NCBI RefSeq assembly: GCF_023015805.1
Contig: NZ_JALKBA010000007.1
Location: 62,001-126,000 of the forward strand
Direction: 5' to 3'
DNA from: Cellulophaga sp. F20128
GTDB lineage: Bacteria; Bacteroidota; Bacteroidia; Flavobacteriales; Flavobacteriaceae
Length of the DNA: 64,000 bases
The first letter of the stretch is position 1. Every line of letters begins with the position of its first letter. The translations under genes were made by a program, and so were the position numbers. Positions 4,690 through 48,101 of this stretch are shown here, one piece after another. Below the pieces are notes generated by a model. It was not told the origin of the DNA. It saw only the letters and a list, made by a program, of their open reading frames with translations, and did no database searches.

Positions 4690-6954
4690 ATGAAACAACT
4701 ATCTGTAGGTCTTAAACCGTTTTTATTTGTCGTTATTCTTTGCATTTTTATTGGATCATGTTCCAATAAAGCTACGCAAAAAACTACAGCAATCTATGTT
4801 TCAGTTGCTGGTGATGATACTGGTGATGGCAGTATCACAAATCCCTATGCTACACTTCTGGAAGCTGTAAAAGCCTCCCGGAATTTGCGAAAATCTGGAG
4901 TTCATGATCCTATTGTCATTTATTTAAGAGAGGGACGTCATCAACTAAACCAAACCTTAGTGCTAGGATTGCTAGACGGGAGACCTACGCAATCCAATAC
5001 AGGGTCCTTTGACACATATGGGGCAGGTGAAACAAGTCTGCCTCCCTATTTAACCATTGCATCTTATCAAGAAGAGCAAGCCGTGGTGAGTAGTGGAGTA
5101 CCCATTACCAATTGGAAGCTCTTGAACAATATACCGACTGAACTCCCTATAAATGCGGCTGGAAAAGTATGGGTAGCCGATATGCCCAATACACTTGATA
5201 AATTCTATACACTTTATGATGGTGAGGGACGATTAAATCGCGCTAGAGATAAAGGATTTGCACCCACAAAACGAGGAGATAAAAGAACCCTTTATTTTCC
5301 TAAGGAAACTTTAAAAAATTGGAGTAATCTCAGTGATGTAGAAATTAACATACGGCCTTCTAGAGCATGGGCTATTAACATGCTCCCTTTAGCTTCGGTT
5401 AATGTGGCTGAAGGCATTGCGAAAACCGGAGTAACTGCTACCTATGACTTAGGTCCGCTTCCTGCGTGGGTACATACAAAAGACGGGGCTACCGCCTGGG
5501 TTGAAAACACACTAGAAGGTCTTAATGAACCTGGGGAATGGGTGGTAAATACAAAAACGAAAAAGGTGTATTTGTGGCCTAAAAATCCCGCAAAAAATGG
5601 TTCTCCTGAAGGGATTTTGGCGCCAAGTACTAGTGAACTTATTAAGGTTGAGGGGACTGTTGATTACAATGGCTCTACGGATACTCCAGTATCCGGAATT
5701 GCCTTTAAAGGCCTAACTTTTTCTCATGGAGACAGATGGGGCTGGACCACTGATGAGAGTCGTTTGGGATGGGGGATGCAACACGATTGGGATATGTTTG
5801 ACAGACCTACAGCTATGCTGCGTTTTCGGGCAGCCGAAAACTGTGAGGTTACCGATTGTAATTTCATAAATTCCGGAGGCTCAGGAGTGCGATTAGATTT
5901 GCATGCGCAACGCAATCGCATTGAAAATAGCGAATTTGCCCATTTGGGTGAGGCCGGAATTCTCCTTGCCGGTTATGGCCCTGGTACAAAAAACGTTAAT
6001 CATCACAATGATATTATAAACAATCACATCCATCATTTTAGTGAAATAACTTGGCATTCTCCCGGAATATGGGCCTGGCAAAGTGGCCATAACCATATGG
6101 CACACAATTACGTACATCACAGTGGGTACGCGGCTGTGCTCATCACAAATAGGGTTGAGCCTGATAGGTCTTTAAACGGAGAAGGAGGAAGAACTATTCG
6201 TCAAGATGAAATTCCTAAACAGATAAAAGACAGCACTAAAGAAACCTATGAAAACTGGAAGGTACGTGAGAAATACAATCATGCGAGACACAACCTTTTT
6301 GAATATAACGAAATTACCCACGCCGTTCAAAAGCTTTCCGATGGAAATGCCATATACGTTTCTGGTGCAGGCACAGGAAATATTCTTCGATACAACTACA
6401 TCCATGATAATTTTGAGCATTCTTTTCCAGCGGCAATTCGTTGTGATGACGACCAGCACGAAACTCTTATTTACGGAAACGTACTGTATAACAACTATGG
6501 ATTTTCTGCTGGAATTGCTTCCAAAGGGGTCAACGATATTATCAATAATTTTATTATACAGCCTTTAACAGCACCTAAATGGGGTTATGTTAGTTTTGAA
6601 TGGGTTAGTGTAAAAGGATCAAAAGTGCACCACAATATTATAATTCCCCACCCTGATGGTGGCAATGCACATGGTGAACGACCTATTGCCAGAAGTGAGG
6701 ACGGAGCTCCTTTCCTCGTAGAAACGGAAATGGACTCTAATCTTTATTATCATCCAACAAATCCGAAATGGATGGATAGACACTTTGATAAAATGCGTGC
6801 AGTAGGCAAAGAGAAAGCAAGTCTTTTTGCCAATCCAATGTTTATAGATGTTAAGAATAAAAATTTTGGCTTTAAAGAAGGTAGTCCGGCTTTAAAATTA
6901 GGCATTGAACCTCTTGATGTGTCAACTATGGGCCTTCTAAAAAAGAACCACTGA
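4690..6954 (+). CDS. Right-handed parallel beta-helix enzyme, GH141-like, lipoprotein
   Basis: 754 residues from ATG 4690. A TTG at 4678 is also in frame, but the ATG gives a clean lipoprotein signal ending in IGSC. The N-terminal block (YVSVAGDDTGDG, then LREGRHQLNQTL) is typical of large PbH1 beta-helix proteins. A central beta-helix carries HDWDMFDRP, the HSPGIWAWQSG turn and DGNAIYVSGAG. The architecture resembles GH141, whose founder members act on fucosides or xylans; polysaccharide lyases share the fold, so the activity is not certain. It is paralogous to the protein at 42270-44453 and shares the C-terminal SPALKLGI-PLDVS motif. With GH29 in the same locus, an alpha-L-fucosidase role is a reasonable inference. 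Confidence 0.7.
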   Translation: MKQLSVGLKPFLFVVILCIFIGSCSNKATQKTTAIYVSVAGDDTGDGSITNPYATLLEAVKASRNLRKSGVHDPIVIYLREGRHQLNQTLVLGLLDGRPTQSNTGSFDTYGAGETSLPPYLTIASYQEEQAVVSSGVPITNWKLLNNIPTELPINAAGKVWVADMPNTLDKFYTLYDGEGRLNRARDKGFAPTKRGDKRTLYFPKETLKNWSNLSDVEINIRPSRAWAINMLPLASVNVAEGIAKTGVTATYDLGPLPAWVHTKDGATAWVENTLEGLNEPGEWVVNTKTKKVYLWPKNPAKNGSPEGILAPSTSELIKVEGTVDYNGSTDTPVSGIAFKGLTFSHGDRWGWTTDESRLGWGMQHDWDMFDRPTAMLRFRAAENCEVTDCNFINSGGSGVRLDLHAQRNRIENSEFAHLGEAGILLAGYGPGTKNVNHHNDIINNHIHHFSEITWHSPGIWAWQSGHNHMAHNYVHHSGYAAVLITNRVEPDRSLNGEGGRTIRQDEIPKQIKDSTKETYENWKVREKYNHARHNLFEYNEITHAVQKLSDGNAIYVSGAGTGNILRYNYIHDNFEHSFPAAIRCDDDQHETLIYGNVLYNNYGFSAGIASKGVNDIINNFIIQPLTAPKWGYVSFEWVSVKGSKVHHNIIIPHPDGGNAHGERPIARSEDGAPFLVETEMDSNLYYHPTNPKWMDRHFDKMRAVGKEKASLFANPMFIDVKNKNFGFKEGSPALKLGIEPLDVSTMGLLKKNH

Positions 6955-9812: not shown

Positions 9813-10433
9813 CTTATATACAATTGCTTTATTGTACTATACCTCAACAAGCCTATTTAGGGCATTGAAATGAATATAAAATAAACTAGGACCTTATGAA
9901 ATATAAAATACACTAACTATGGCTTTATAGCCTCCTTTGGGAACATCAAACATCTAATTATTTTAGGCGCTCTATTGATACTGTATTGGGTCTTTTTATA
10001 TGAAATGCCCAGGGTAGCACCAATGAATAAAAACAAATTGCAGATAATTGAAAAATTAAGCATTGTTTTTTAACAACTAACTTTTAGACTGCCTAGATAG
10101 TGTGAATCATAGCTAAAAGTAAAAATTAGTATATTCAATTATTAGTTGATTTCTGTTCATACATTAATTGAGCAATAGAATGGTCTATTAAAGAAAAGGA
10201 TTGGGGAAATAATTTTGAATTTTTGTACAAGAACAAGTATTGAAAATGAAATGCCCTGATAAAATTTTTTACTTTATTAAGTATTGTTGTTATTACTTTT
10301 TCTTGTGAAAAAGACCTTAAAGGCCCTATAAAAATCAATCAGGTAATCCATGTGAAGATCCCTCGGCTGGTTTTTTTGTTAAAATAGAAACATAGATTCA
10401 GGATTATTAATAAGTAATATAGATATAGCAAAT
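9813..10433. other. 620-base spacer with gene debris
   Basis: No intact gene is seen. From 9915 to 10073 a frame without a start encodes a hydrophobic segment (LIILGALLILYWVFLYEM) and then a basic tail, like the end of a membrane protein. Around 10165-10240 another short frame reads IEWSIKEKDWGNNFEFLY before a stop. A frameshifted lipoprotein start follows at 10246. Together these suggest several decayed genes. Confidence 0.4.
10246..10387 (+). pseudogene. Frameshifted lipoprotein fragment
   Basis: ATG AAA at 10246 is followed, one base out of frame, by a coherent lipoprotein signal: NALIKFFTLLSIVVITFSC and then EKDLKGPIK, ending at TAG 10385-10387. A single missing base after the second codon would explain the break. 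The frame stops after about 45 codons, so the body is lost as well. The parent family cannot be told. Confidence 0.4.
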
Positions 10434-12227
10434 ATGAATTTAAGAACTTTAAAAATTAACACATTAGGTGCACTAATAATTTTGATGGCTTTTTCTACAA
10501 TTTCATCAGCTCAAAAAAAACCTAATGTCATTGTTGTTATTACTGATGACCAAGGCTTTAATGATTTAGGAGCTATGGGAAACCCCTATATTAAAACACC
10601 CAATATAGACCAATTTTACAAGGAATCTGTACGGTTTACAAACTTCCATGTTTCTACCACCTGTGCACCAAGCAGAGGGGCTTTAATGACTGGCAGACAT
10701 ACCAACCGGGTAAATGTGTATCATACGATTATGGGGCGTTCATTATTGTATGATGATGAAGTTATTCTACCCCAAATTTTTGCTCAAAACGGATATACAA
10801 ACGGAATGTTTGGCAAATGGCATTTAGGCGACAATTACCCGTACCGGCCAGAAGATCGTGGATTTCATGAAGTGGTACGACACGGTGGTGGTGGCATTAC
10901 GCAAGGTCCAGACTACTGGGGCAATGATTATTTTGATGATACCTATTGGCACAATGGAAAAACAGAAAAATACAAAGGGTATTGTCCCGATGTATTCTTT
11001 TCTGAAGCATTAGATTTCATAGAAGACAATAAGGACAATCCCTTTTTCTGTTATATCTCTACCAATGCTCCCCATGCACCCTATAATGTACCTCAGAAAT
11101 ACTATGACCTTTATAAGGACCAAAGCGAATTGCCTGATCAGTTTAAGCGGTTCTATGGTATGATCACCAATATTGATGACAACTTTAAAGTTTTACAAAA
11201 AAAATTAGACGCCTTAAATCTAACGGATAATACCGTGCTTATTTTTATGACCGATAATGGAACAGCCGGTGGTAATAGAATTTTTGATGCCGGAATGAAA
11301 GGCTCTAAAGGCAGTGTTTATGAGGGCGGGCACCGAGTGCCATTGTTTATTCGTTGGCCAGACGGAAAACTCACAGGTGGTAAGGATATCGATAAATTAG
11401 TGGCGCATTATGATTTGCTTCCAACCTTTGTTGATTTACTTGGCTTAGATTTCAATCCAGTGAAACCATTAGATGGCATCAGTTTAAAACCACTTTTACA
11501 CAATACAGGCGAAACCATACCCAATAGAGTAATGTATGTAGATACTCAACGCATGCAAAATCTTATTAAGTACAAGTCGTATGCAGTTATGGATGATAAC
11601 TGGAGATTGGTCAATGGCGATGAACTTTACAATATAAAAGAAGATAAAATTCAGTCTAAAAATGTTATTGCCAATCACCCAGAAGTTGTACAAAGACTGG
11701 CTTTAGGATATGAAAAATGGTGGCAATCATTTATAGATGAAGGCGTAGATGAAAAATACAGTTATATAAAAGTTGGCTCCAATTATGAAAACCCTTCTCG
11801 AATATCTGCTCATGATATGCTTACAGGTAAATTTGGACATGTATGGCATCAATATGGAGCTACAACGGGTTCTGCGGCATCGGGTCGATGGAAGATAGAA
11901 TTCGTGGCAGATGGAAATTACAAAATAAGTCTTAGACGCTTTCCTAGAGAAAGTGGTTTGGCCATTAACGCAACCTTCCCAGAAACACCAAAAACTCCAG
12001 AATTAGATAGGAGTATGCCTGCCAGTATAAAATCAGATTTTGAACAAGCCTATATTTATGTAGCCAATTTGGCAAAATCAGACAAAATTAAGGAGGGACA
12101 AGAGGAAGTAACTTTTTCTGGATATATCCCCGCAGGGAAGTATGACATGGAAGCACAACTCATAGACAAAAACAATGTAGTACATCCCGCCTATTATGTA
12201 TATATAGAAAAAATAGCAATCCAATAA
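10434..12227 (+). CDS. S1-family sulfatase with C-terminal accessory domain
   Basis: 597 residues with a signal peptide ending at SSAQ. Metal ligands lie in ITDDQGFND. The motif CAPSR has Cys77 as the formylglycine precursor, and GKWHLGDN and the EGGHRVPL block follow. After the sulfatase core (about residue 460) comes a C-terminal region of about 130 residues with ISLRRFPRESG and a final YYVYIEKI strand. The same tail occurs in the sulfatases at 13522 and 37242. It removes sulfate esters from the target glycan or its oligosaccharides. First gene of a plus-strand run, followed after 11 bases by the TIM-barrel protein. Confidence 0.94.
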   Translation: MNLRTLKINTLGALIILMAFSTISSAQKKPNVIVVITDDQGFNDLGAMGNPYIKTPNIDQFYKESVRFTNFHVSTTCAPSRGALMTGRHTNRVNVYHTIMGRSLLYDDEVILPQIFAQNGYTNGMFGKWHLGDNYPYRPEDRGFHEVVRHGGGGITQGPDYWGNDYFDDTYWHNGKTEKYKGYCPDVFFSEALDFIEDNKDNPFFCYISTNAPHAPYNVPQKYYDLYKDQSELPDQFKRFYGMITNIDDNFKVLQKKLDALNLTDNTVLIFMTDNGTAGGNRIFDAGMKGSKGSVYEGGHRVPLFIRWPDGKLTGGKDIDKLVAHYDLLPTFVDLLGLDFNPVKPLDGISLKPLLHNTGETIPNRVMYVDTQRMQNLIKYKSYAVMDDNWRLVNGDELYNIKEDKIQSKNVIANHPEVVQRLALGYEKWWQSFIDEGVDEKYSYIKVGSNYENPSRISAHDMLTGKFGHVWHQYGATTGSAASGRWKIEFVADGNYKISLRRFPRESGLAINATFPETPKTPELDRSMPASIKSDFEQAYIYVANLAKSDKIKEGQEEVTFSGYIPAGKYDMEAQLIDKNNVVHPAYYVYIEKIAIQ

Positions 12228-12238
12228 TTAACAATATT

Positions 12239-13450
12239 ATGTACAAAAGCAACCACAAACCCATTTTTGTTATCATATGCCTCTTTGCATATTCCCTTTT
12301 TAGCCCAAAGGCCATTGCACAAAACAGTTATAGCCTGAGTGATGGCAGCAGTTTTACTAGCAAGGATTTTTACCCTAATTTCAGTTGGGAAACCACTCCT
12401 ATGTATTATATGTTTGGGGATAGCAAGCGCACACTTAGTTCCAAAGAGGTTCGTTTTATTGCTGAAAAATCAGATTTTATATGTATTGAAAAATCACATG
12501 GGTTAAATGAATTAGGGGCAGCAGAATTAGGAGCCAAACACGAGGCTGCAGCTTTTAAGAAAATAAATCCAAATGCCAAAGTATTATTCTATTACAACTC
12601 TGCCTATGCTTGGCCCTTTACCTCTTACAATAAAAATTTTACGAATAAGAATATTAATGACCATCCCGAGCTTAAGAAGTTTTTGATCATTGATCCTGAG
12701 ACGGGAAAATTAGCACATCGAAATAATGTGTTCTTTTTTGATGTTTTAAATCCTGATTTAAGAGAATGGTGGGTAAACACAGTTGCTAAAGGGGTGGAAG
12801 AATCTGGTTGCGACGGAGCTTTTATTGACCAAATGCATGGCTTTGCTTGGTTGCGTAATGATAAAAGTGAAGCTGTTAAAAAAGCAATGGGTGAAATGAT
12901 GACCAGATTAAAGGAGAGGCTTGGACCAGACAAGATTCTGTTGGGTAATAATGCTGCACAAGAGATCGCTTCATATGCCTACCCTGCCACAGACGCTATT
13001 ATGTTTGAACATTACAACGAGAAGCTACTAAGCAAAGAAAAGCTTTTGGAGGATTGGGAAAATATGCTCCGAATTGCCAAGGATGGAAAAATGTCTATTT
13101 TCCGAATCGGAGTAGAATCGGATGTCCTTGGTAAAGAAAAGGACAAAGATTTTTTTAAAGGTAAAAAACGAAATAAAAGATATGCTGCCTTAGCCAAAGA
13201 ACGTCTGGAATATTACCAAGCTTGCTTCCTAATTGGAGCACAACCATATTCATATTTTCAATATGGTTGGGGTTGGGCATTGTCTTCCGGATCATTAGTA
13301 AATTTTCCCGATTTATTAAAACCCCTAGGCACTCCCAAAGGAGCTTACCAACGTAAAACTGAAGATGGATGGGAATTTACGCGCGAATTTGAACATGCTT
13401 CTGTTTGGGTCAATACCGAAAAAGGAGAAGGAAAAATACGATGGAAATAA
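12239..13450 (+). CDS. Putative TIM-barrel glycoside hydrolase (GHL15-like), paralog A
   Basis: 403 residues with a signal peptide (ending near KAIAQ). The N-terminal FSWETTPMYYMFG strand, then CDGAFIDQMHG (Asp192, Asp197) and IMFEHY (Glu257), resemble the barrel strands of putative glycosidase families such as GHL15. The acids at the strand ends are possible catalytic residues. The C-terminus ends in FEHASVWVNTEKGEG and IRWK, a motif shared with two paralogs at 21894 and 31871. No family with proven activity is recognised. It is sandwiched between two sulfatases with a short spacer, so it probably acts on the same sulfated glycan. Confidence 0.6.
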   Translation: MYKSNHKPIFVIICLFAYSLFSPKAIAQNSYSLSDGSSFTSKDFYPNFSWETTPMYYMFGDSKRTLSSKEVRFIAEKSDFICIEKSHGLNELGAAELGAKHEAAAFKKINPNAKVLFYYNSAYAWPFTSYNKNFTNKNINDHPELKKFLIIDPETGKLAHRNNVFFFDVLNPDLREWWVNTVAKGVEESGCDGAFIDQMHGFAWLRNDKSEAVKKAMGEMMTRLKERLGPDKILLGNNAAQEIASYAYPATDAIMFEHYNEKLLSKEKLLEDWENMLRIAKDGKMSIFRIGVESDVLGKEKDKDFFKGKKRNKRYAALAKERLEYYQACFLIGAQPYSYFQYGWGWALSSGSLVNFPDLLKPLGTPKGAYQRKTEDGWEFTREFEHASVWVNTEKGEGKIRWK

Positions 13451-13521
13451 ATAACCCCTAAACAATTGAACACCCAACGAATAGTCTTAAATTACAAGCA
13501 GTTAAAAACAATGTACCAATT

Positions 13522-15390
13522 ATGAAACTACACCTAAAAACATTAATCGCAGAAATTTGGCAACGGTCAAATATAAAGAGCACAAAACACCTTGTTCTAA
13601 TTTTAATATGCCCTATTATTCTTTTTTCATGTAAAGAAAAACAGGATAAAACGGAAAAGGAAGGTCCCGCAAAGAAGCCAAACATCATCTTTGTTATAAC
13701 TGATGATCAAGGGTATGGTGATTTGGGACATACAGGAAACTCAGTGATAAAAACACCAGCTATTGATAAGTTTTCTAAAGAAGCAGTAAACCTAACCAAT
13801 TACCATGTAGGCACCACATGCGCACCCACCAGGGCAGGATTATTAACAGGAAGGAATGCGAACAGAAATGGTGTATGGCATACCATAATGGGGGCTTCTA
13901 TTTTAAATCGTGAAGAAGTTACTATGGCAGATGTCATGCAGGAAAACGGCTATAAGACTGGAATGTTTGGCAAATGGCACTTGGGGGACAACCATCCTTT
14001 TGCACCAGAAGAAAGAGGTTTTGACGAGGCCTTTTACCACGGTGGTGGTGGTGTTGGACAAACACCAGATTATTGGAATAATGATTATTTTGATGACACT
14101 TATTTTAGAAATGGCACACCTGAAAAAAAAGAAGGGTATTGTACAGATGTGTGGTTTGACGAAGCCTTAAGCTTTATAGAAAACAAAAAAGATGAACCTT
14201 TCTTCTGTTATTTAAGTTTAAATGCCCCTCATGGTCCATATAATCTTCCAGAGAAATATTATGACATTTATAAAGATGAAGATAGAATTGATGAAACGCA
14301 GAAGCGTTTTTATGGTATGATTACCAATATTGACGATAACTTCTCTAGACTTTTGAACAAATTGGAAACCCTTGGAATTGCAGAAAACACGATCCTGATT
14401 TTTACGACAGATAATGGTACTGCCAGAGGCTACAATGTGAATAAGAAAACAGGTGAAGTTTTTGGATACAATGCTGGTATGCGCGGCACAAAAGGAAGTG
14501 AATATGATGGTGGTCATAGAGTTCCTTTTATTATTAGATGGCCAAACGGAAAGTTAACAGGCGGCAAAAAACTAGATAACTTAGTTGCTCACGTTGATAT
14601 CTTACCTACTCTTACAAAATTAACTGGTCAAGATTTTACGCCTAAAAAAACAATGGATGGTAAAGATATGAGTGAATATATCTTAGGAAAAAGTGAAGCA
14701 ACACCAAGGTATTTAGTAACCGATACCCAACGTGTATCCTGGCCAATTAAAGATAAAAATAGTTGTGTAATGGATGACACATGGCGCCTTATAAAAGGCA
14801 AGGAGCTTTATAATATTGTTGAAGATCCAGGGCAAGAAAACAATATTGCTGATCAGCATCCAGAAAAAGTAGCAGAAATGAATGCTTTTTACAATAGCTG
14901 GTGGGAAGATGTAATTAAGGAAACTAAATATTCGGTTATTGATTTAGGCACCGGTAAAACTGATGTCTTAACCTGTCATGACGCCCGTACCATAGATTAC
15001 TACCCACCTTGGAACCAACAAATGATTCGTTCAGGAAAACCTATGAAACCAGCCCCTTTTTCCGTAAATTTTGTAACTGCAGGGAAATATAAGTTTCACT
15101 TACGAAGGTGGCCAGCAGAGAGTGGTTTAGCTCTTGGCGCTGCCATAAAAGACGGAACACCTGGCACACACTATATGGCTGGAAACGCCAATGGAAAGGC
15201 TATGAAGTTTAAAAAAGCGCATTTAAAAATAGCAGACAAAACAATTACTATTGATGTAAACAATGCCGCTGAAGCCGCTGTTATAGAGATGGAAGTAGCC
15301 CAAGGCGAAACAGAACTTTTAGCCTATTTTGATATGGTTGATGGTACTCCAAGCAATGCATTTTATATTAATGTGGAGAAAGTAAATTAA
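13522..15390 (+). CDS. S1-family sulfatase with C-terminal accessory domain, lipoprotein
   Basis: 622 residues. The lipoprotein signal ends with ILFSC (Cys37). ITDDQGYGD holds metal ligands; CAPTR with Cys100 is the formylglycine motif; GKWHLGDN and DGGHRVPF follow. The C-terminal region (about residue 490 on) has FHLRRWPAESG and ends FYINVEKV, like the sulfatases at 10434 and 37242. Its sequence is close to the 10434 enzyme throughout the core (shared PDYWGNDYFDDTY/PDYWNNDYFDDTY block), so the two probably arose by duplication and may recognise related positions. Confidence 0.94.
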   Translation: MKLHLKTLIAEIWQRSNIKSTKHLVLILICPIILFSCKEKQDKTEKEGPAKKPNIIFVITDDQGYGDLGHTGNSVIKTPAIDKFSKEAVNLTNYHVGTTCAPTRAGLLTGRNANRNGVWHTIMGASILNREEVTMADVMQENGYKTGMFGKWHLGDNHPFAPEERGFDEAFYHGGGGVGQTPDYWNNDYFDDTYFRNGTPEKKEGYCTDVWFDEALSFIENKKDEPFFCYLSLNAPHGPYNLPEKYYDIYKDEDRIDETQKRFYGMITNIDDNFSRLLNKLETLGIAENTILIFTTDNGTARGYNVNKKTGEVFGYNAGMRGTKGSEYDGGHRVPFIIRWPNGKLTGGKKLDNLVAHVDILPTLTKLTGQDFTPKKTMDGKDMSEYILGKSEATPRYLVTDTQRVSWPIKDKNSCVMDDTWRLIKGKELYNIVEDPGQENNIADQHPEKVAEMNAFYNSWWEDVIKETKYSVIDLGTGKTDVLTCHDARTIDYYPPWNQQMIRSGKPMKPAPFSVNFVTAGKYKFHLRRWPAESGLALGAAIKDGTPGTHYMAGNANGKAMKFKKAHLKIADKTITIDVNNAAEAAVIEMEVAQGETELLAYFDMVDGTPSNAFYINVEKVN

Positions 15391-15420: not shown

Positions 15421-15466
15421 TAACAACCACTAACTTTTGTTTTATAAAAAAAGTTAGTGGTTGTTA
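15421..15466. terminator. Long perfect stem-loop between two sulfatase genes
   Basis: An 18-bp perfect inverted repeat (15421-15438 with 15449-15466; arm begins TAACAACCACTAAC) surrounds a 10-base AT loop. It sits 31 bases after one sulfatase and 27 before the next. There is no T run after it on the plus strand, so it may be a partial terminator or an mRNA-processing or stability element and not a full stop. Confidence 0.5.
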
Positions 15467-15492
15467 ATCAATTCACATTAATATATATTCCT

Positions 15493-16971
15493 ATGAAAAA
15501 GTTTTTAAAATTTGTAGTAGTAATACCTATTGCATCGTTGTTGTTTTGTAACTGTAAAAATGCAAAAACTCAACCTAAAGAAGAAAAACGGCCTAATTTT
15601 TTATTCGTTTTGGTCGATGATCAATCTCCATTTGATTTACAGGTTTACGATCCTAAATCTATATTAGAAACGCCTAACATAAGTAAGTTGGCTGAAGATG
15701 GACTTGTATTAGAAAGTGCTTACCATATGGGATCTTGGTCTGGCGCTGTGTGTACCCCTTCTCGCCATATGATTATGAGCGGAAGAACCCTTTGGCATTT
15801 GCCTTCCCGTGGAAAACAATTTCAAAATCCTAATCCACCAGATAGTTTGGAGAATCAGACGATGGCCGCAGTATTTAACAGCGCAGGATATAAAACCATG
15901 CGCACCTGTAAAATGGGAAATTCATATGCAGCAGCAAATGCACAATTTACCGAGGTATATGACGCTACCAAACGAGGAGGTACGGAAGAGACAGGAAGTG
16001 CTTGGCATGCAAAACAAGTTTTAGGCTATTTAGACAGACGGAATTCAACACAAGAAGAAGATCCTTTTTTAATTTATTTTGGTTTTTCACACCCACATGA
16101 TGTTCGCGATGGCACTCCAGAATTGCTCGCCAAGTACGGCGCTACAAACCATAAAGATAAAGAAAGTCTTCCTCCTGCCAATAGTAAACAACCTCCTTTA
16201 CAAGACAACTACCTTGCAGCACACCCATTTTTTCATGGTCATCCTAATTTAAGAGATGAAGACAAGGTAAGTGGGGTATGGAAAAACAGAGACGAACAAA
16301 CGGTTCGCAATGAGCTAGGGCGTGAATACGCTTGCTCTGAAAATATAGATATTCAAATTGGCAAAGTCCTTAAAAAGCTTGAAGAAATGGGAGAATTGGA
16401 TAATACGTACATTATCTATACTTCAGACCATGGGATGTCTATTGGACGACATGGCTTAATGGGAAAACAAAACTTATACGAACATACTTGGCGCGTTCCA
16501 TTTATTATCAAAGGCCCAGGCATAACTGCTGGGAAACGCTTAAAAGGGAACTCCTATTTGCTTGATATTTTACCAACACTCTGTGATTTGGCAGGTATTC
16601 CACAGCCTGAAACCGTTGAAGGAATAAGTTTAAAACCAGTAATTGAGGGTAAAAAAGAGGTTGTAAGGGAGGTTATGTACGGTGTGTACTCTGGAGGTAC
16701 AAAACCTGGTATGCGAAGCGTAAAGAAAGGAGATTGGAAACTGATAAAGTACGACACTATGGATGGTACTGTACGGGAAACACAATTGTTTAACCTTGCA
16801 GAAAACCCAAATGAATATCTCGCTGAACATAAAAGGACTAAGGAAATGGAGACCAATTTGGCAGCTAACCCAAAATTTGCAAGTAAACTTGCGGAGATGG
16901 AAGCTTTATTATTGGACCAAATGGAACAACATGATGATCCATACCGCCTTTGGAATCAAAGCCAACACTAA
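15493..16971 (+). CDS. S1-family sulfatase, lipoprotein
   Basis: 492 residues from ATG 15493; an in-frame GTG at 15457 lies inside the stem-loop and is unlikely to be the start. The lipoprotein-like signal has cysteines at 19 and 21. LVDDQSPFD holds metal ligands, and SGAVCTPSR has Cys87 for formylglycine. The wide spacing, the early GRTLWHLP block, and TSDHGMSIGRHG near residue 310 set it apart from the sulfatases on either side and recall choline- or iduronate-sulfatase-like subfamilies, so it likely removes sulfate from another position. A hairpin precedes it; the DUF642-ThuA gene follows 15 bases later. Confidence 0.93.
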   Translation: MKKFLKFVVVIPIASLLFCNCKNAKTQPKEEKRPNFLFVLVDDQSPFDLQVYDPKSILETPNISKLAEDGLVLESAYHMGSWSGAVCTPSRHMIMSGRTLWHLPSRGKQFQNPNPPDSLENQTMAAVFNSAGYKTMRTCKMGNSYAAANAQFTEVYDATKRGGTEETGSAWHAKQVLGYLDRRNSTQEEDPFLIYFGFSHPHDVRDGTPELLAKYGATNHKDKESLPPANSKQPPLQDNYLAAHPFFHGHPNLRDEDKVSGVWKNRDEQTVRNELGREYACSENIDIQIGKVLKKLEEMGELDNTYIIYTSDHGMSIGRHGLMGKQNLYEHTWRVPFIIKGPGITAGKRLKGNSYLLDILPTLCDLAGIPQPETVEGISLKPVIEGKKEVVREVMYGVYSGGTKPGMRSVKKGDWKLIKYDTMDGTVRETQLFNLAENPNEYLAEHKRTKEMETNLAANPKFASKLAEMEALLLDQMEQHDDPYRLWNQSQH

Positions 16972-16986: not shown

Positions 16987-18894
16987 ATGAACAACCACTC
17001 TTTTAAGAAATTATTCCTTATTGCATTATTCCTATGCTGTAATATACTCGTTTTACAAGCACAAATAAAAAATGCATCGTTTGAAAAAGACAAGGTGACT
17101 GGCGAAAATGAGGTTGTAAAAAAGTTAAATGGATGGACTATTACTCGTGGAAACGTTGAATTGATTACAAACAATGTGTTTTCTGCCGTAGAAGGAAATC
17201 AAGTGCTGGATTTAAACGGGAGTGAACCTGGGAGTATTAAGCAGACGATAAAAGGACTTCAAAAATCTACTGACTATACTCTAAAATTTGAATATGCAGA
17301 TCAAAAAGGCAGAAAACGAGATACTGAAACGCTGCTTGCAACTGCTAACATTATCATTAACGGAAAAACTGTTACAACACTCCGTAATTTGTCACCCGCA
17401 CCTAATTATATAGGTGGTATTGGTTTTGGCTTTACATCAACAGCAAAAGGAACCGCTACTATTGAATTTGTTTCAACAACAAATGGCAATATGGGGCTAG
17501 TGATTGATAACCTTCGAATAACTGCTGGTTTACCCATAAAACCCCCTGTAAATACGCATTTGGTAAATGGTGATTTTGAAATGAAAGTGGATAGTGAAAG
17601 TGGGAATCCGCATATATATGGGGAGCAATTACCAGGATGGCTAATTATGCGGGAGAATATTGACCTTATTGCGATTAAGCGGTTTGGAACACCCAGTGGC
17701 AAGTGGGTGATAGATTTAGGAGGGCATGGCCCAGGTGGTATTGCGCAAACTATAACGAGCCTCTCACCTGGTGAAACGTATCGATTATCAATGCTTTATT
17801 CTAGACATAAATCCTGGGATGAAGAAGACCCATTAACAGGTGAAATTCTTATTGATAATGAAGTAGTATTGCGGTTAAACCGAAATAAATCTACAAAAGC
17901 ACCCCGTTGGGAAAAGGTCACTTATGACTTTATTGCCCCAACCAATGGAGAAATAACCCTCTCTTTGTATTCAACAGCATTTAAAGTTGGTGGTGGTATA
18001 TTATATGACGACATCAAGATTGAAAAAGTTAGGGATATTGTTGCTCCAAAAAAAATATCAGTCCTAATTGTTGACGGTTTAAGTAATCATCAATGGGAAA
18101 CAAACACCAAATATCTTCAACAAATATTGGAAGCCACTGGAAAGTTCAACGTATCCGTTAGTACATGTCCAAATCAACAAAAAAATCCAAACGATTGGGA
18201 GAATTGGAATCCTGATTTTAAAAAGTATTCCGTAGTAATTCAAACGTATAACAATATCTTTAAAGAAAATGATTTGCAATGGCCTGTCCATATAAAACGA
18301 TCTTTTGAAAAATATGTAGATGAAGGTGGTGGTGTTTATATCTATCATAGTGCTTCCAATGCATTTAAAGGGTGGGCTGCGTATAATGAAATGATTGGTT
18401 TGGGCTGGAGAAATAAGGATTCTGGTTTAGCTGTTACAATCAATGACAAGGAAGAACTAGAGATTATTCCAAAAGGAGAAGGTGAAAACTCAGGACACGG
18501 CCCTAGAACAGATCCATTGATAACTCGCATTGGTGATCATCCTATTCATATAGGTATGCCAAAAACCTGGAAGGCTGCTGACGTAGAAATTTATAAATAT
18601 TTAAGAGGTACAACCAAAAATTTAGAAGTTATATCCTATGCCAAAGACCAAAAAACCGCATTAAATTTTCCAATGGAATGGACTGTAAATTATGGAAAAG
18701 GTAAAGTTTACTGTTCTACCTATGGTCATTTCTGGAAGAATCAAGATTGGCCTCCAAGTATGCGATGTGTAGCATTTCAACATTCAATGGTGAGAGCTTT
18801 ACAATGGTTGAGTGGTACTGAGGTTGAAAATTTTGTGGAGGCTGATTTTCCAACCAGTGAAAGCATCGTTTTAAAACAACCTTTATTAGATTAA
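16987..18894 (+). CDS. Exported protein with two DUF642-like domains and a ThuA domain
   Basis: 635 residues with a signal peptide (to about residue 25, LQAQ). Two tandem beta-sandwich domains (residues about 26-180 and 192-345) start with IKNASFE and VNGDFEM and have the hallmarks of DUF642/choice-of-anchor carbohydrate-binding domains. Residues about 355-620 form a ThuA-like domain (ISVLIVDGLSNHQW, GGGVYIYHSASNAF, YGKGKVYCSTYGHFW). ThuA of rhizobia works with the dehydrogenase ThuB in the use of 3-keto disaccharides. The next gene is a quinoprotein dehydrogenase with a DUF1080 domain, so the pair may form an oxidative branch of glycan breakdown. The enzyme reaction here is inferred. Confidence 0.75.
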   Translation: MNNHSFKKLFLIALFLCCNILVLQAQIKNASFEKDKVTGENEVVKKLNGWTITRGNVELITNNVFSAVEGNQVLDLNGSEPGSIKQTIKGLQKSTDYTLKFEYADQKGRKRDTETLLATANIIINGKTVTTLRNLSPAPNYIGGIGFGFTSTAKGTATIEFVSTTNGNMGLVIDNLRITAGLPIKPPVNTHLVNGDFEMKVDSESGNPHIYGEQLPGWLIMRENIDLIAIKRFGTPSGKWVIDLGGHGPGGIAQTITSLSPGETYRLSMLYSRHKSWDEEDPLTGEILIDNEVVLRLNRNKSTKAPRWEKVTYDFIAPTNGEITLSLYSTAFKVGGGILYDDIKIEKVRDIVAPKKISVLIVDGLSNHQWETNTKYLQQILEATGKFNVSVSTCPNQQKNPNDWENWNPDFKKYSVVIQTYNNIFKENDLQWPVHIKRSFEKYVDEGGGVYIYHSASNAFKGWAAYNEMIGLGWRNKDSGLAVTINDKEELEIIPKGEGENSGHGPRTDPLITRIGDHPIHIGMPKTWKAADVEIYKYLRGTTKNLEVISYAKDQKTALNFPMEWTVNYGKGKVYCSTYGHFWKNQDWPPSMRCVAFQHSMVRALQWLSGTEVENFVEADFPTSESIVLKQPLLD

Positions 18895-18912
18895 CTTATT
18901 ACAAAGCATAAT

Positions 18913-21771
18913 ATGAGTAACAAAAATAGCTTTTTTACTACAACTTCTTTTAAGTCACTGTTACTCCTGACTTTTATTCTCTTATCCTTTTATTCATGTC
19001 ATGTAGAAAAACCAAAAACGACGACTGATATACAGAAAAATATAGACCCACTAGACAACTACACAGATTGGTCTATTTACAGAGGCGACAAAAAGGGAAA
19101 TCAATACTCTGAATTGGCCCAAATACATGCTGCTAATGTGCATAATCTTGCATTGGTTTGGCAATACCAAACGGGTGATGCTACAAAAAATTCATCCATT
19201 CAAGTAAACCCAATTATTGTAGACGGATTGATGTATATTTCATCTCCTAGTTTAAATGCAATTGCTTTAGACGCTACAACAGGAGAAGAAGTCTGGGTTT
19301 TTAATTCCTCAAAATACAATGAAAATCAAACTGCTTTTAAAGGCAGAACAAGAGGAGTTACCTATTGGAGTTCTAAAGACGGTAGTGACCAACGCATTTT
19401 TCTTTTTGTTAAAAACAGAGTCTATGCTTTAGAAGCAAAAACAGGAAAACTCATTACTTCATTTGGAATAAATGGCCATATCGACTTACGTGAAAATTTA
19501 GATATGGATATTAATAAAGCATCCATTGAAGTAACGTCTCCAGGCATCATTTATGAAAACTTTTTAATAGTGGGCTCTCGCGTGCCTGAAGGATATAATT
19601 CTACACCCGGTAATATTAGGGCTTACGATGCCATCACAGGAAAATTTAAATGGGTTTTTCGCACTATTCCTAAAGAAGGTGATTTTGGGTTTGATACTTG
19701 GCAGTTTCAGGAAGATGAAACCTATGGTGGAGCCAATGCTTGGAGCGGTTTTACTGTTGATGAAAAGCGCGGTTGGGTGTTTTTAGCTACTGGGTCACCA
19801 GCCTATGATTTTTATGGAGGTCACAGGAAAGGTGAAAATTTATTTGGAAATTGTGTATTGGCTCTTAATGCGAAAACAGGTGAACGAATTTGGCATTACC
19901 AAACTGTTCATCATGATATTTGGGATTATGATAATCCTTCAGCCCCCATTTTAATAACCATTGATGATGGTAAAGAGAAAAAAGATGCCGTTGTTCAACT
20001 TACAAAAATGGGGTTTGTATTTGTTTTGGATAGAGAAACTGGAAAACCACTCTTTCCAACCTTAGAAATGCCTGTTCCAAAATCAGAGATTGATGGTGAA
20101 GAAGCATGGCCTACTCAACCTATGCCTACTAAGCCCCTTCCTTTAAGTCGCCAAGGCATTACTGAAGCTGATTTAACGGATATATCTCCCGAATCCAATG
20201 AATATGCAAGAAAAGAATTTAATACTTATAAGTCTGCAAGTTTATACACACCACCTTCGGAAAGAGGAACATTAACTAGCCCAAGTGTTTTAGGAGGAGT
20301 AGAATGGCAAGGTGGATCTTACGATCCGTATACTAATATACTTTATGTGAATGCCAATAATGTTGCTAGTATCTCAAAATTAAAAAAAGTATACGAAACT
20401 GCAAACACTTCTAAATTGACAAATTTAGAAGTTGGTCATCAAATATATCTGAATAATTGTGCCTCTTGTCACGGTATAGATAGAACGGGTATAGCGCCAT
20501 TATACCCTGCAGTCATCAACCTGATTAAATCAAAAGAAGAGATTGCAGCAATTATAAAAAACGGCAAAAATACAATGCCCTCTTTTTCACAATTAACAAC
20601 CAAAGAACTTGATGCTATTACTGAATTCATTGCTGGTAATGATTCCTTGGTAAAAGATAAAAAGAGTAATTCAGGCACAAAGACACGATACTTACATACA
20701 GGGTACAGTCTTTTTCTAGATCAAAATGGGTACCCTGGAACTAAACCACCTTGGGGAACATTAAATGCTATTGATATGTCTAGCGGTGATTATGTTTGGA
20801 AAAAACCTTTAGGAGAATATCCTGAACTTGTGAAACAAAACATACGCAATACGGGCACCTTAAATTACGGTGGGGCTGTTGCAACTGCTGGAGGTCTTAT
20901 TTTTATCGCTGCTACGGCCGATGAAAAATTTAGAGCTTTCGAGAAAAGCCGAGGTCGTATTTTATGGGAGTACAAATTACCCGCTGGTGGCTATGCAACC
21001 CCAAGTGTTTTTATGCAAAACGGGAGACAATACATAGCAATAGTAGCTGGTGGAGGAGGCAAAAACAATACACCTTCTGGTGATTCTGTAATGGTATTTG
21101 CTTTGCCAGAAAACAACGATACTAAAAACACACCAAAAAATAGTACTGCAATCCCTAATAAATGGATTTCTCTTTTTGACGGCAAAACCTTAGATGGATG
21201 GGTACATATGAATGGGTCTCACAGTTATTCGGTAGAAAATGGTGCCATAATTGGAAGAACCACGGCAAAAAGTGCCAATTCTTTTTTATGCTCTCTTGAT
21301 GAATTTGAAAATTTTGAATTGGAATGCGAAGTTAAAGTAGATGATATTACAAACCAAGGCATACAGTTTCGTTCTTCGGTACGTCCAATAACTGAAAAGA
21401 ATCATCCAGCATGGAGAGCAGGGAGGGTTTGGGGGCCTCAGTTAGAAATACGTAGAAAGATGGGCGAAAATTCAATTACAACAGGTCTACTTTATGGAGA
21501 AGCACTTGGAACTGGTTGGATTTCCTCAAAAGAAAAAATAGAAAAAGGACATGATTATTTTATTCCTGAAGCTTGGAATAAAATTAGGATAGTTGCAGAC
21601 GGCCCAAGAATTCAAACTTTTGTAAATGGTCACTTAATTGAAGATATTATAGATAAAGAAGTATACAAGTCCCATCCAAAAGGGTTTATAGCGCTACAAG
21701 TGCACGGTATTAACGGTGAAAGGCAATTTTCAATGGGATGGAGAAACATAAAAATCCGCAGCATAAAATAA
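18913..21771 (+). CDS. PQQ-dependent dehydrogenase fused to cytochrome c and DUF1080 domain
   Basis: 952 residues. A lipoprotein signal ends in FYSC (Cys29). Residues about 45-740 form a quinoprotein propeller of the membrane glucose/alcohol dehydrogenase type (TDWSIYRGDKKGNQYS; HHDIWDYDNPSAP). A cytochrome c domain is inserted in the propeller at about residues 500-580, with haem motif CASCH at 516-520 and a likely Met ligand at 555. Residues about 750-952 are a DUF1080 domain (ISLFDGKTLDGW), a family with 3-keto-glycoside hydrolase/lyase members. One chain could thus oxidise a sugar with electrons passing to haem, and then break the glycosidic bond. PQQ synthesis genes are not in the window. 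It ends the plus-strand run and converges on a minus-strand operon. Confidence 0.88.
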   Translation: MSNKNSFFTTTSFKSLLLLTFILLSFYSCHVEKPKTTTDIQKNIDPLDNYTDWSIYRGDKKGNQYSELAQIHAANVHNLALVWQYQTGDATKNSSIQVNPIIVDGLMYISSPSLNAIALDATTGEEVWVFNSSKYNENQTAFKGRTRGVTYWSSKDGSDQRIFLFVKNRVYALEAKTGKLITSFGINGHIDLRENLDMDINKASIEVTSPGIIYENFLIVGSRVPEGYNSTPGNIRAYDAITGKFKWVFRTIPKEGDFGFDTWQFQEDETYGGANAWSGFTVDEKRGWVFLATGSPAYDFYGGHRKGENLFGNCVLALNAKTGERIWHYQTVHHDIWDYDNPSAPILITIDDGKEKKDAVVQLTKMGFVFVLDRETGKPLFPTLEMPVPKSEIDGEEAWPTQPMPTKPLPLSRQGITEADLTDISPESNEYARKEFNTYKSASLYTPPSERGTLTSPSVLGGVEWQGGSYDPYTNILYVNANNVASISKLKKVYETANTSKLTNLEVGHQIYLNNCASCHGIDRTGIAPLYPAVINLIKSKEEIAAIIKNGKNTMPSFSQLTTKELDAITEFIAGNDSLVKDKKSNSGTKTRYLHTGYSLFLDQNGYPGTKPPWGTLNAIDMSSGDYVWKKPLGEYPELVKQNIRNTGTLNYGGAVATAGGLIFIAATADEKFRAFEKSRGRILWEYKLPAGGYATPSVFMQNGRQYIAIVAGGGGKNNTPSGDSVMVFALPENNDTKNTPKNSTAIPNKWISLFDGKTLDGWVHMNGSHSYSVENGAIIGRTTAKSANSFLCSLDEFENFELECEVKVDDITNQGIQFRSSVRPITEKNHPAWRAGRVWGPQLEIRRKMGENSITTGLLYGEALGTGWISSKEKIEKGHDYFIPEAWNKIRIVADGPRIQTFVNGHLIEDIIDKEVYKSHPKGFIALQVHGINGERQFSMGWRNIKIRSIK

Positions 21772-36477: not shown

Positions 36478-37215
36478 ATGAGAGTAGCACTATTTTTTAC
36501 TTTTTACTTTTTCATCACATTTCATATGCTTTCTGCTCAAGAAAGTAATAGATCTAACACTATATGGGAAAACCCTTTTAAATCCGAAACTTATTATCAA
36601 ATAACACCTTCTAAAACAGTAAGAAATCAGAAAATATTTGAGGTAAAAGGTAAGAAAATAAAGGCTTTATTTGATTGGGAAGATAAAAAAGCACCTTTTG
36701 GGATGATTGTTACAAAGAAGGAATACGGCTATTACAATCTTGAATTTAAATACAAATGGGGTAAGCGAAAGTTTGAACCAAGGGCTAAAGAAAAAAGGGA
36801 TGCAGGAATACTATTTCATATTCAAAAAAACAGAAATGAAATTTGGCCTTCATCCTTGGAGTGTCAAATACAAGAAGGTGACACGGGGGATTTATGGGTT
36901 ATAAAAGGGCCTAAAGTTTCCGTTGTGCTAGAAGACGGAACAACTAAATTCATTGATTCCTCACAAAAACAAAAATACTTGCGCAACATAAAATTCAATA
37001 ATTATGAAAATAAGGGATGGAATCTTGTACGCCTAGAAGTTCGTGGTTCAGAATCGGCAAAATTCTATGTCAACGGGCATTTGGTAAATGAAATTAAGGA
37101 TTTCTTAAAGGATGATGATTCGCCCCTAACCAAAGGCAGTATCTTGTTACAAGCTGAAGGTGCCGAAATTACTTATAAAAACATACGAATCCAGGAGTTA
37201 GCTAGCACAAAATAA
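36478..37215 (+). CDS. DUF1080 (3-keto-glycoside hydrolase-like) exported protein
   Basis: 245 residues, signal peptide to about residue 21 (HMLSAQ). A concanavalin-like beta-sandwich of the DUF1080 type is seen: MIVTKKEYGYYNLEFKYKWG, DAGILFHIQ, WPSSLECQIQEGDTGD, and the end VNGHLVNEIKD with the strand ITYKNIRIQEL. Members of this family have been shown to cleave 3-keto glycosides; others may only bind sugars. It sits between two sulfatases and 10 bases after the first. A paralog lies at 47280 and a fused copy in the dehydrogenase at 18913. Confidence 0.8.
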   Translation: MRVALFFTFYFFITFHMLSAQESNRSNTIWENPFKSETYYQITPSKTVRNQKIFEVKGKKIKALFDWEDKKAPFGMIVTKKEYGYYNLEFKYKWGKRKFEPRAKEKRDAGILFHIQKNRNEIWPSSLECQIQEGDTGDLWVIKGPKVSVVLEDGTTKFIDSSQKQKYLRNIKFNNYENKGWNLVRLEVRGSESAKFYVNGHLVNEIKDFLKDDDSPLTKGSILLQAEGAEITYKNIRIQELASTK

Positions 37216-47279: not shown

Positions 47280-48101
47280 ATGCATCTAATAAAAATTAAC
47301 CTATCATCCCTATTCATTCTTGCACTTTTTTTATTACCAACCGCTTTAAGTGCTCAAAATAATAAGCAGAAGAAAAATGGTTATGTAAAACTTTTTAATG
47401 GTAAAAATTGGGATGGATGGCGACTAGAATTGAGGAATAAGGATACCGTAATGGCTAAAAAAGTATATGCTATAGAAAAGGGTCTGGTACATGTTTTTAA
47501 AGATTTTCCTGATAGTTTAAATTTGAATACCGGTGATAATGGTACACATGGCCTTTTTTACACCACCAAAAAATACAGCAAATACATTCTAAAGTTTGAC
47601 TATAAATGGGGCGATAAAATAACAAACAATTTTGATAGATGGCAATATGATGCTGGCTGTTATTACCATGTTTTTGATGCTAAAATTTGGCCAAAAGGAA
47701 TTGAATACCAAGTACGATACAATCATATTACCAAAAAGAATCACACAGGCGATTTTTGGGCTGCCGGCACAACTTTAGATTGGTATTCAAAAGATGGAAA
47801 AACATTTCTTTCACCAAAAGATGGTGGAATAAAAAAAGAGCAAAAGAAAAATGAGCTTTACGGTCATGCGAACCCAAAACACAATGCACTAAACAACAAA
47901 TGGAACCGATGTGAAATCATTGTGATGGGAGACAAATACACCATTCATAAACTAAACGGGAAGATTGTAAACATAGGAACTAATCTATCCGTAAGCGAAG
48001 GTATAATAGGGTTTCAATCTGAAACTGCAGAAATATATTATCGGAATATAAAAATCAAAGAATTTAATGAGGAAATTCCAATGGAAAAATTTCTAAAGTA
48101 G
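47280..48101 (+). CDS. DUF1080 (3-keto-glycoside hydrolase-like) exported protein
   Basis: 273 residues, signal peptide to about residue 26 (TALSAQ). The DUF1080 opening YVKLFNGKNWDGWRLE, the core YILKFDYKWGDK, DAGCYYHVF, IWPKGIEYQVRY and TGDFWAAG, and the final IYYRNIKIKEF are clear. It probably acts on or binds sugars in the periplasm; 3-keto-glycoside cleavage is known for some relatives. A 114-base spacer upstream leaves room for its own promoter. A sulfatase remnant follows it. Confidence 0.82.
   Translation: MHLIKINLSSLFILALFLLPTALSAQNNKQKKNGYVKLFNGKNWDGWRLELRNKDTVMAKKVYAIEKGLVHVFKDFPDSLNLNTGDNGTHGLFYTTKKYSKYILKFDYKWGDKITNNFDRWQYDAGCYYHVFDAKIWPKGIEYQVRYNHITKKNHTGDFWAAGTTLDWYSKDGKTFLSPKDGGIKKEQKKNELYGHANPKHNALNNKWNRCEIIVMGDKYTIHKLNGKIVNIGTNLSVSEGIIGFQSETAEIYYRNIKIKEFNEEIPMEKFLK

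What the first reader, a model, noticed from the sequence alone, without database searches (positions are those of the whole stretch)
16987..21771. Possible oxidative 3-keto glycan-cleavage module (ThuA plus PQQ-dehydrogenase/cytochrome c/DUF1080 fusion)
Seen: a DUF642-ThuA protein is followed after 18 bases by one polypeptide with a quinoprotein propeller, an inserted CASCH haem domain and a C-terminal DUF1080 domain; two more free DUF1080 proteins are in the locus. Known: some DUF1080 proteins cleave 3-keto glycosides, and ThuA acts with a dehydrogenase in 3-keto-disaccharide use. Inferred: the fused protein oxidises a sugar ring and then breaks the bond, giving a non-hydrolytic route beside the sulfatases, with the quinoprotein in place of the usual NAD-linked Gfo/Idh oxidase.
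Basis: partly seen in the sequence, partly recalled or inferred. Interest (0 to 1): 0.8.

Follow-up and report, generated by a model that had tools for sequence, protein, structure and literature searches.

The report
Quinone sugar oxidase fused to lyase
One secreted bacterial protein joins a PQQ-type sugar oxidase with its own haem wire to a domain related to enzymes that break oxidised sugar bonds; the same pairing recurs, fused or as neighbouring genes, in several bacterial groups and suggests a respiratory way to cut glycans without hydrolysis.

Summary
ORF 18913-21771 encodes a PQQ propeller with an inserted CASCH cytochrome c and a C-terminal DUF1080/PF06439 domain, 18 bases after a ThuA gene. 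It is not an isolated oddity: 9 of the 80 loci kept from a genome-wide scan carry the fusion (one cut by a contig end, one with an in-frame stop), in bins labelled Bacteroidota, Verrucomicrobiota and Acidobacteriota; three Cyclobacterium loci have it as adjacent genes. Close neighbours of the quinohaemoprotein genes are enriched in DUF1080. Residues aligned with the Gcd catalytic Asp and Lys are retained; other cofactor-site positions are not all conserved. The DUF1080 domain is about as constrained as the propeller, and its model matches solved 3-keto-glycoside eliminase/hydratases, with CBM66 close behind. Best reading: the propeller oxidises a glycoside hydroxyl and the tethered DUF1080 domain eliminates or hydrates the ketoglycoside, with electrons going to respiration. 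Ring position, substrate and DUF1080 catalysis are not shown. No PqqC was found, so PQQ would be imported. ThuA linkage is lineage-specific. New variant of a known kind.

The parts
16987..18894 (+). ThuA protein (635 aa): N-terminal beta-sandwich (HpiC1/CBM_4_9/choice-of-anchor C-like), C-terminal ThuA domain (residues 359-584)
   Evidence: next to the fusion also in G129 and G019
18913..21771 (+). fusion protein, 952 aa: quinoprotein propeller + inserted cytochrome c + DUF1080
19069..20415 (+). PQQ propeller, first part (residues 53-501) with E226, W277, D338, K365
   Evidence: PF01011; alignment to E. coli Gcd
20425..20631 (+). inserted cytochrome c domain (residues 505-573; CASCH 516-520, Met555)
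   Evidence: PF13442; C, C, H and M each in 121 of 124 aligned rows
20755..21108 (+). PQQ propeller, closing part (about residues 615-732)
   Evidence: PF13360 and second PF01011 stretch; model
21160..21759 (+). DUF1080 / 3keto-disac_hyd domain (residues 750-949)
   Evidence: PF06439 122.1 bits; model pLDDT 87.9 and PDB matches
36478..37215 (+). free, divergent DUF1080 protein in the same sulfatase locus
47280..48101 (+). free, divergent DUF1080 protein in the same locus
15457..16971 (+). sulfatase gene ending 15 bases before the ThuA gene; two further sulfatases at 10434-12227 and 13522-15390

Best explanation
The fusion is a secreted protein, probably a lipoprotein, that couples two steps of an oxidise-then-eliminate glycan pathway. 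A Ca/PQQ propeller oxidises a ring hydroxyl (most likely C3) of a sugar at the end of an oligosaccharide exposed by the locus's sulfatases. Electrons pass to the inserted cytochrome c and on to the respiratory chain. The tethered DUF1080 domain then acts on the ketoglycoside by elimination and/or hydration, releasing the next sugar unit. ThuA, in this lineage, probably processes the keto product. Shown: architecture, conservation, retained catalytic-type Asp and Lys, fold of DUF1080, recurrent linkage. Inferred: PQQ loading, ring position, substrate, DUF1080 catalysis, electron acceptor, ThuA role, lipoprotein anchor.
For: Architecture. Gcd Asp466 and Lys493 align with D338 and K365, each in 123 of 124 rows (rows not deduplicated, one gap); W404 with W277 (123), Asp354 with E226 (Glu in 109), D730 with D670 (115), N607 with N480 (only 84). 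A match through the DUF1080 domain in 3 of 397 family genomes; fusion in 9 of the 80 loci kept elsewhere, gene G+C from 37 to 66% and within 8 points of its own flank, so not one contaminating source. Split version: Cyclobacterium quinohaemoprotein followed by a DUF1080-DUF6807 protein, 3 loci. L056 has a DUF6807 gene and L067 an AP_endonuc_2 gene, each overlapping the fusion ORF by 4 bases; L080 has Gfo/Idh and a ThuA-DUF1080 protein beside its quinohaemoprotein. Up to two same-strand genes within 200 bases per locus, E up to 0.001: DUF1080 9 of 75, DUF6807 5 (3 of them the Cyclobacterium proteins), AP_endonuc_2 5, ThuA 3; genes over 3 kb away: DUF1080 0 and ThuA 1 of 115 by my HMMs, AP_endonuc_2 2 of 115; Fisher p 1.7e-4 for DUF1080. 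A TIM-barrel enzyme, AtOGE, eliminates 3-keto-glycosides (PMC10628242, passages). Omega, window against G129: DUF1080 0.053, propeller 0.041 and 0.043, cytochrome 0.26. The DUF1080 model matches 8v31, 8tda (titled 3-keto-2-hydroxy-glucal hydratase), 8rr2 and 9fbe (3-keto-glycoside eliminase/hydratase).
Against: No assay. The propeller's best NCBIfam match is the glucose/quinate/shikimate family, well under its cut-off (489.5 against 832.65 bits), so C1 oxidation is possible. Gcd His262 and Asn355 are not conserved, and Ser295 replaces the Asn of 1yiq (Gcd has Val there). The DUF1080 domain is only 16-18% identical to the named hydratases; nearest is 4jqt (BT3469, 35%), titled only 'putative glycosyl hydrolase'; CBM66 follows closely (best E 2e-8 against 1e-9 to 7e-9, 16% identity). 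A DUF1080 protein, THTE_1561, is cited as an endo-xanthanase/lichenase, that is a plain hydrolase (PMC9007349, passage). PqqC: 0 of 69 genomes, and 1 of 24 in a second set. Of the 69 positive family genomes 66 have no match through DUF1080; most of the 79 loci scored have none of these neighbours, and 6 of 6 wider family loci show no DUF1080 or ThuA. Only 1 of 395 phylum genomes, the window's own, has the fusion, and 0 of 2 congeners have even the propeller. Cupin_2 is as frequent among near genes (5 of 75) as AP_endonuc_2. BT2157/BT2158 deletions gave no growth defect on raffinose-family sugars (PMC11501099, passage).
Confidence: 0.55

Rival explanations
1. The propeller is an aldose (C1) or alcohol dehydrogenase of the Gcd type, and the DUF1080 domain is a carbohydrate-binding module that holds the protein on its polysaccharide.
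For: Best NCBIfam match is the glucose/quinate/shikimate PQQ dehydrogenase family; CBM66 is close behind the hydratases among structural matches of the DUF1080 model; the linker looks flexible.
Against: The DUF1080 domain is conserved like the propeller, 74 of 208 positions invariant in ten fusions; a profile search of PDB sequences lists DUF1080-type chains (and one thioredoxin) but no CBM66 up to E 0.01; neighbours include DUF6807 and AP_endonuc_2 genes.
Confidence: 0.2
2. Both domains are active but the DUF1080 domain only hydrates 2-hydroxy-3-keto-glycals; the bond is cut by a separate eliminase (TIM barrel, DUF6807 or ThuA protein).
For: Two solved relatives are titled hydratases (8v31, 8tda); possible eliminase genes sit beside some fusions.
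Against: 8rr2 and 9fbe titles claim both activities for one DUF1080 protein; 5 of 8 fused loci scored show no DUF1080, ThuA, DUF6807, TIM-barrel or Gfo/Idh gene in the flanks held, by my HMMs (several flanks are short).
Confidence: 0.17
3. The protein is present but rarely active as an oxidase, because the host cannot make PQQ.
For: PqqC was found in 0 of 69 family genomes with the quinohaemoprotein, own included, with a working positive in the second search; mixed conservation at the cofactor site.
Against: Strong purifying selection on the propeller and retained Asp/Lys; E. coli Gcd is known to work with imported PQQ (recalled).
Confidence: 0.06

Closest known systems
Gut 3-keto-glycoside pathway (BT2156-2160 of B. 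thetaiotaomicron; Alistipes AL2; PDB 8tda, 8v31, 8rr2, 9fbe)
   Same: DUF1080 fold; coupling of an oxidase with DUF1080
   Different: There the oxidase is BT2158, a periplasmic glycoside 3-dehydrogenase (PMC11300592, passages) of the Gfo/Idh kind (its NCBIfam model hits a Gfo/Idh protein); here a PQQ quinohaemoprotein in the same polypeptide
LacABC plus DUF1080 (Caulobacter lactose use; PMC9007349, passages)
   Same: Periplasmic membrane-bound oxidation of a disaccharide proposed to feed a DUF1080 hydrolase
   Different: LacABC is a separate three-component dehydrogenase (FAD-type, recalled), not a quinoprotein, and not fused
Quinohaemoprotein alcohol dehydrogenases (1kv9, 1kb0, 1yiq) and E. 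coli Gcd
   Same: PQQ propeller fold and catalytic Asp/Lys region; a cytochrome c in the first group
   Different: Cytochrome c is inserted in the propeller rather than at the C-terminus; the Cys-Cys stretch of 1yiq is missing; only about 50 residues precede the propeller; extra DUF1080
BT3469 (PDB 4jqt), double DUF1080 protein
   Same: Nearest solved structure to the fused DUF1080 domain (35% identity, rmsd 2.2)
   Different: No oxidase domain; activity not stated

Membership tests
PQQ-dependent dehydrogenase (PF01011) | propeller over Pfam cut-off and fold | tested here: met
   653.7 bits against 26.7; Foldseek to 8gy2, 1kv9, 1kb0
PQQ-dependent dehydrogenase (PF01011) | catalytic Asp and Lys retained | tested here: met
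   D338 and K365 align with Gcd Asp466 and Lys493; roles recalled
PQQ-dependent dehydrogenase (PF01011) | remaining calcium/PQQ-site residues | tested here: inconclusive
   E226, W277, D670 kept; His262 and Asn355 of Gcd not conserved; Ser295 for the Asn of 1yiq
PQQ-dependent dehydrogenase (PF01011) | PQQ synthesis in the host | tested here: not met
   no PqqC in own genome, G129 or G019; import not tested, so this does not exclude PQQ use
Membrane glucose dehydrogenase (TIGR03074) | curated score cut-off | tested here: not met
   489.5 against 832.65 bits
Type II quinohaemoprotein alcohol dehydrogenase | C-terminal cytochrome c domain | tested here: not met
   cytochrome inserted at 505-573, propeller resumes to about 732
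3-keto-glycoside eliminase/hydratase (DUF1080) | PF06439 over cut-off and the fold | tested here: met
   122.1 against 26.8 bits; model matches 8v31, 8tda, 8rr2, 9fbe
3-keto-glycoside eliminase/hydratase (DUF1080) | catalytic residues | tested here: inconclusive
   Asn814, Trp888, Asn889, Asn905, Gln929, His931, Asn945 kept, but the E-x-Q motif of most other DUF1080s compared reads Q-x-E here; no ligand contacts available to me
3-keto-glycoside eliminase/hydratase (DUF1080) | activity on a ketoglycoside | not testable with these tools
   needs enzyme assay
ThuA | PF06283 over cut-off | tested here: met
   64.3 against 33.4 bits
Oxidative 3-keto pathway with Gfo/Idh oxidase | Gfo/Idh gene in the locus | tested here: not met
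   20 matches to NF058561 in own genome (none over its cut-off), none on contig C92

The most novel reading that the evidence does not exclude
A single polypeptide is a respiratory glycan lyase: it oxidises a sugar ring with PQQ, sends the electrons through its own haem to the respiratory chain, and cuts the glycosidic bond by elimination in its DUF1080 domain. In the window it would work on desulfated (possibly fucan-type) oligosaccharides without a glycoside hydrolase. It would be one of several parallel quinoprotein or cupredoxin versions of the 3-keto pathway.
Probability: 0.42. Interest if true: 0.82.

Novelty: new variant of a known kind. Interest (0 to 1): 0.62.

Why it matters
The stepwise oxidise-eliminate-hydrate route is known from NAD-type gut enzymes (recalled; PDB titles). 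A fused quinohaemoprotein version would put the route into the envelope of bacteria that respire, tie bond cleavage directly to respiration, suggest a function for a widespread family of quinohaemoproteins (69 of 397 family genomes; 56 of 395 phylum genomes), and make it testable with one purified protein.

Tried and rejected
PQQ synthesis: the first PqqC search rang nowhere, so I repeated it with genomes behind other loci (24 searched, 2 of 26 handles not held) and got one positive, L114's genome, which shows that the search works; own genome, G129 and G019 stay negative. ThuA as a general partner of the fusion: rejected, 0 of 8 other fused loci scored have it in the flanks held. Sulfatases as a specific partner: not supported, 3 of 75 near and 7 of 115 far genes. 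Empty-quinoprotein model TIGR04528 scored 246.7 against 650, no better than general similarity, so I do not read the protein as PQQ-free. Papers: DUF1080 is in 6 papers of the library, '3-keto-disaccharide hydrolase' in 0, the PQQ/ThuA/3-keto/DUF1080 search listed 20 of 37; no title or abstract start shown mentions this fusion, but I did not read these papers whole, and most subscription papers are not held. The main paper on the pathway (recalled; Nature 2024) was looked up by a DOI from memory and is not held; I used PDB titles instead.

The far-gene control took 115 of 131 genes, 16 long ones dropped for the residue limit. Near genes came from 79 loci (L057 gave no PQQ ORF), at most two per locus. 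Family counts use E 0.001, not curated cut-offs. All 9 fused loci are from metagenome bins. Of the 9 near genes with DUF1080, 3 are Cyclobacterium and one lies beside a protein that already has DUF1080 (L054). L057 is counted as a fusion although one in-frame stop lies in its cytochrome region; it is not in the ORF table or tree. The tree is the quick method, without bootstrap. L135-L141 were not in the ORF set, so their empty rows there say nothing. My neighbour HMMs were built from few sequences; the TIM-barrel one used one protein chosen by eye (L034:9421-10278).

Full report
What is there. The fusion ORF 18913-21771 (952 aa) starts 18 bases after the ThuA ORF 16987-18894, which itself starts 15 bases after a sulfatase. 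Pfam gives a PQQ propeller (best stretch 53-501, resuming from about 615), an inserted cytochrome c (505-573, CASCH 516-520) and a C-terminal PF06439/DUF1080 domain (750-949). It is the only PF01011 protein found in the genome, which also has 18 PF06439 matches and 10 ThuA matches, 9 of these over the cut-off. The N-terminus looks like a lipoprotein signal by eye (cysteine after a hydrophobic stretch; also in G129, G019, L053, L054 and L067).

Is the oxidase intact? Against E. coli Gcd (fetched), Asp466 and Lys493 align with D338 and K365, each present in 123 of 124 aligned rows (rows not deduplicated, one gap). W404 aligns with W277 (123 rows), Asp354 with E226 (Glu in 109), Asp730 with D670 (115) and Asn607 with N480 (84). 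Not kept: Gcd His262 (Gly144) and Asn355 (Gly227); Ser295 stands where 1yiq has Asn and Gcd has Val. The roles of these residues are recalled. The site is therefore Gcd-like in its catalytic pair but mixed elsewhere, and PQQ binding is not proved. The haem Cys, Cys, His and the likely axial Met555 are each in 121 of 124 rows. The AlphaFold model (pLDDT 82.4, pTM 0.84) matches membrane and quinohaemoprotein alcohol dehydrogenases (8gy2, 1kv9, 1kb0) and, for the last domain, BT3469 (4jqt). The cytochrome is inserted before the last propeller strands rather than C-terminal.

How common is it? The quinohaemoprotein is in 69 of 397 family genomes (E 1e-60) and 56 of 395 phylum genomes (E 1e-100), mostly as a protein of about 720 aa without DUF1080. 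A match through the DUF1080 domain was in 3 of 397 (own, G129 at 84%, G019 at 67%) and in 1 of 395 (own); 0 of 2 congeners had the protein. Of these 80, seven hold a whole single-ORF fusion (L053, L054, L055, L056, L060, L065, L067), one is cut by the contig end (L064) and one has a single in-frame stop in the cytochrome region (L057). Their bins are labelled Bacteroidota (5), Verrucomicrobiota (2) and Acidobacteriota (2); all nine are metagenome bins. Gene G+C runs from 37% to 66% and is within 8 points of the flank in each locus, largest differences G019 and L056, which argues against one contaminating source. Three Cyclobacterium loci carry the quinohaemoprotein followed by a separate protein with DUF1080 and DUF6807. 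In the quick tree the 11 fused rows fall in one 16-row clade (SH-aLRT 100). The other five rows are the three Cyclobacterium loci, L080 (ThuA-DUF1080 protein 121 bases away) and L058 (DUF6807 40 bases away, contig ending 136 bases downstream). The label needs 2 changes, against a mean of 10.4 in 500 shuffles, none as low.

Selection. Between the window and G129, dN/dS is 0.041 and 0.043 for the two propeller parts, 0.053 for DUF1080, 0.26 for the cytochrome and 0.38 for the linker (dS 0.9 to 1.7, near saturation); against G019 the DUF1080 dS could not be computed. Over nine other fusions the DUF1080 domain is 59-84% identical and the main propeller part 56-91%; 74 of 208 positions from residue 745 are invariant. 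A mere binding module would usually drift more; that is inference.

What does DUF1080 resemble? The domain model (pLDDT 87.9) matches 4jqt best (rmsd 2.2, 35% identity). After that come several DUF1080 structures including 8v31 and 8tda (titled 3-keto-2-hydroxy-glucal hydratase), 8rr2 and 9fbe (titled 3-keto-glycoside eliminase/hydratase), all at 16-18% identity, and then CBM66 at a slightly weaker E-value. A sequence profile finds the DUF1080-type chains at E 2e-22 or better and no CBM66 up to E 0.01. Most positions conserved among the 19 DUF1080 domains compared are kept (N814, G816, W888, N889, N905, Q929, H931, N945), but the E-x-Q motif of most others reads Q-x-E here, as in L112, L114 and the first domain of the C31 protein. 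I could not map catalytic residues, so this test is inconclusive. The two free DUF1080 proteins of the window lack His931.

Neighbourhood evidence. For 79 loci I took up to two same-strand genes within 200 bases: 75 proteins, of which PF06439 9, DUF6807 5, AP_endonuc_2 5, Cupin_2 5, ThuA 3, sulfatase 3 at E 0.001. Genes more than 3 kb away, 115 of 131 examined: sulfatase 7, Cupin_2 3, AP_endonuc_2 2, and by my own HMMs ThuA 1 and DUF1080 0; Fisher p 1.7e-4 for DUF1080. Three of the nine are Cyclobacterium, so about seven independent cases. Single loci are telling. L056 has DUF6807 and L067 an AP_endonuc_2 gene overlapping the fusion ORF by 4 bases. L080 has Gfo/Idh, quinohaemoprotein and a ThuA-DUF1080 protein. 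L115 has a protein with a ThuA domain and a sub-cut-off AP_endonuc_2 match 19 bases away. L119 has a ThuA-GSDH-cytochrome protein 135 bases away. Against this, most of the 79 loci show none of these genes. In the window's family, loci with 1.5 kb flanks show DUF1080 in 2, Gfo/Idh in 3 and ThuA in 1 of 27, and six wider loci show no DUF1080 or ThuA. AtOGE, a TIM-barrel enzyme, eliminates 3-keto-glycosides, with preliminary evidence for a hydratase and a Gfo reductase in its operon (PMC10628242, passages). PMC9007349 (passages) links LacABC oxidation to DUF1080 proteins in lactose use, but also cites a DUF1080 endo-xanthanase. PQQ enzymes can make a ring ketone: PQQ-dependent DepA makes 15-acetyl-3-keto-DON (PMC10975547, abstract start in the listing).

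Parallel modules in the same genome. C70: a ThuA-GSDH-PKD-cytochrome c protein, a free ThuA, and a DUF1080 protein followed by a weak cytochrome c match. C48: two proteins with DUF7133/TIGR02604, cupredoxin and ThuA, and a DUF1080 protein followed by a cupredoxin protein with a DUF7133 match just under its cut-off. C31: a double DUF1080 followed by Gfo/Idh. So ThuA or DUF1080 is repeatedly coupled to a secreted oxidoreductase-like protein with a one-electron carrier. This hints that the fusion is one form of a wider scheme; it is a pattern in one genome, not a proof.

Cofactor. PqqC was in 0 of 69 family genomes with the quinohaemoprotein and in 1 of 24 genomes in a second search, which serves as positive control. 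The host would need imported PQQ, as E. coli does for Gcd (recalled).

Verdict. I give 0.55 to a quinohaemoprotein oxidase feeding a ketoglycoside to its own DUF1080 domain. The open steps are PQQ loading, ring position, substrate, DUF1080 chemistry, electron acceptor and the role of ThuA.

Noticed in passing
L033:6837-10190 (G000:C70): ThuA-GSDH-PKD-cytochrome c protein of 1117 aa, beside a free ThuA; a DUF1080 protein (11406-13292) overlaps the ORF of a protein with a weak cytochrome c match (13286-15241).
   Followed up: partly
L034:3758-7087 and 10335-13880; L035:6308-10159 (G000:C48): Two DUF7133/TIGR02604-cupredoxin-ThuA fusions with a Gfo/Idh gene between them, and a DUF1080 gene followed by a cupredoxin gene with a sub-cut-off DUF7133 match.
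   Followed up: partly
L080:6807-11900: Gammaproteobacterial bin with Gfo/Idh, quinohaemoprotein and a ThuA-DUF1080 protein in a row.
   Followed up: partly
L059, L061 and L112, gene after the quinohaemoprotein: DUF1080-DUF6807 two-domain protein, a possible clue to DUF6807 function (Pfam for L112; my HMMs for all three).
   Followed up: partly
L106:5979-7946, L113:10308-12224: DUF1080 joined to FG-GAP repeats next to a quinohaemoprotein gene.
   Followed up: no
L073:6312-10166, L077:1910-5038: Quinohaemoproteins with long N-terminal extensions (about 590 and 360 aa) without a Pfam match at E 0.001.
   Followed up: no
window 4678-52593: Nine sulfatases among the ORFs scanned, three GHL15 proteins, a GH29-type fucosidase and a SusC/SusD pair; GH141-like helix protein at 4678-6954; hybrid two-component regulator at 48361-52593.
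   Followed up: no
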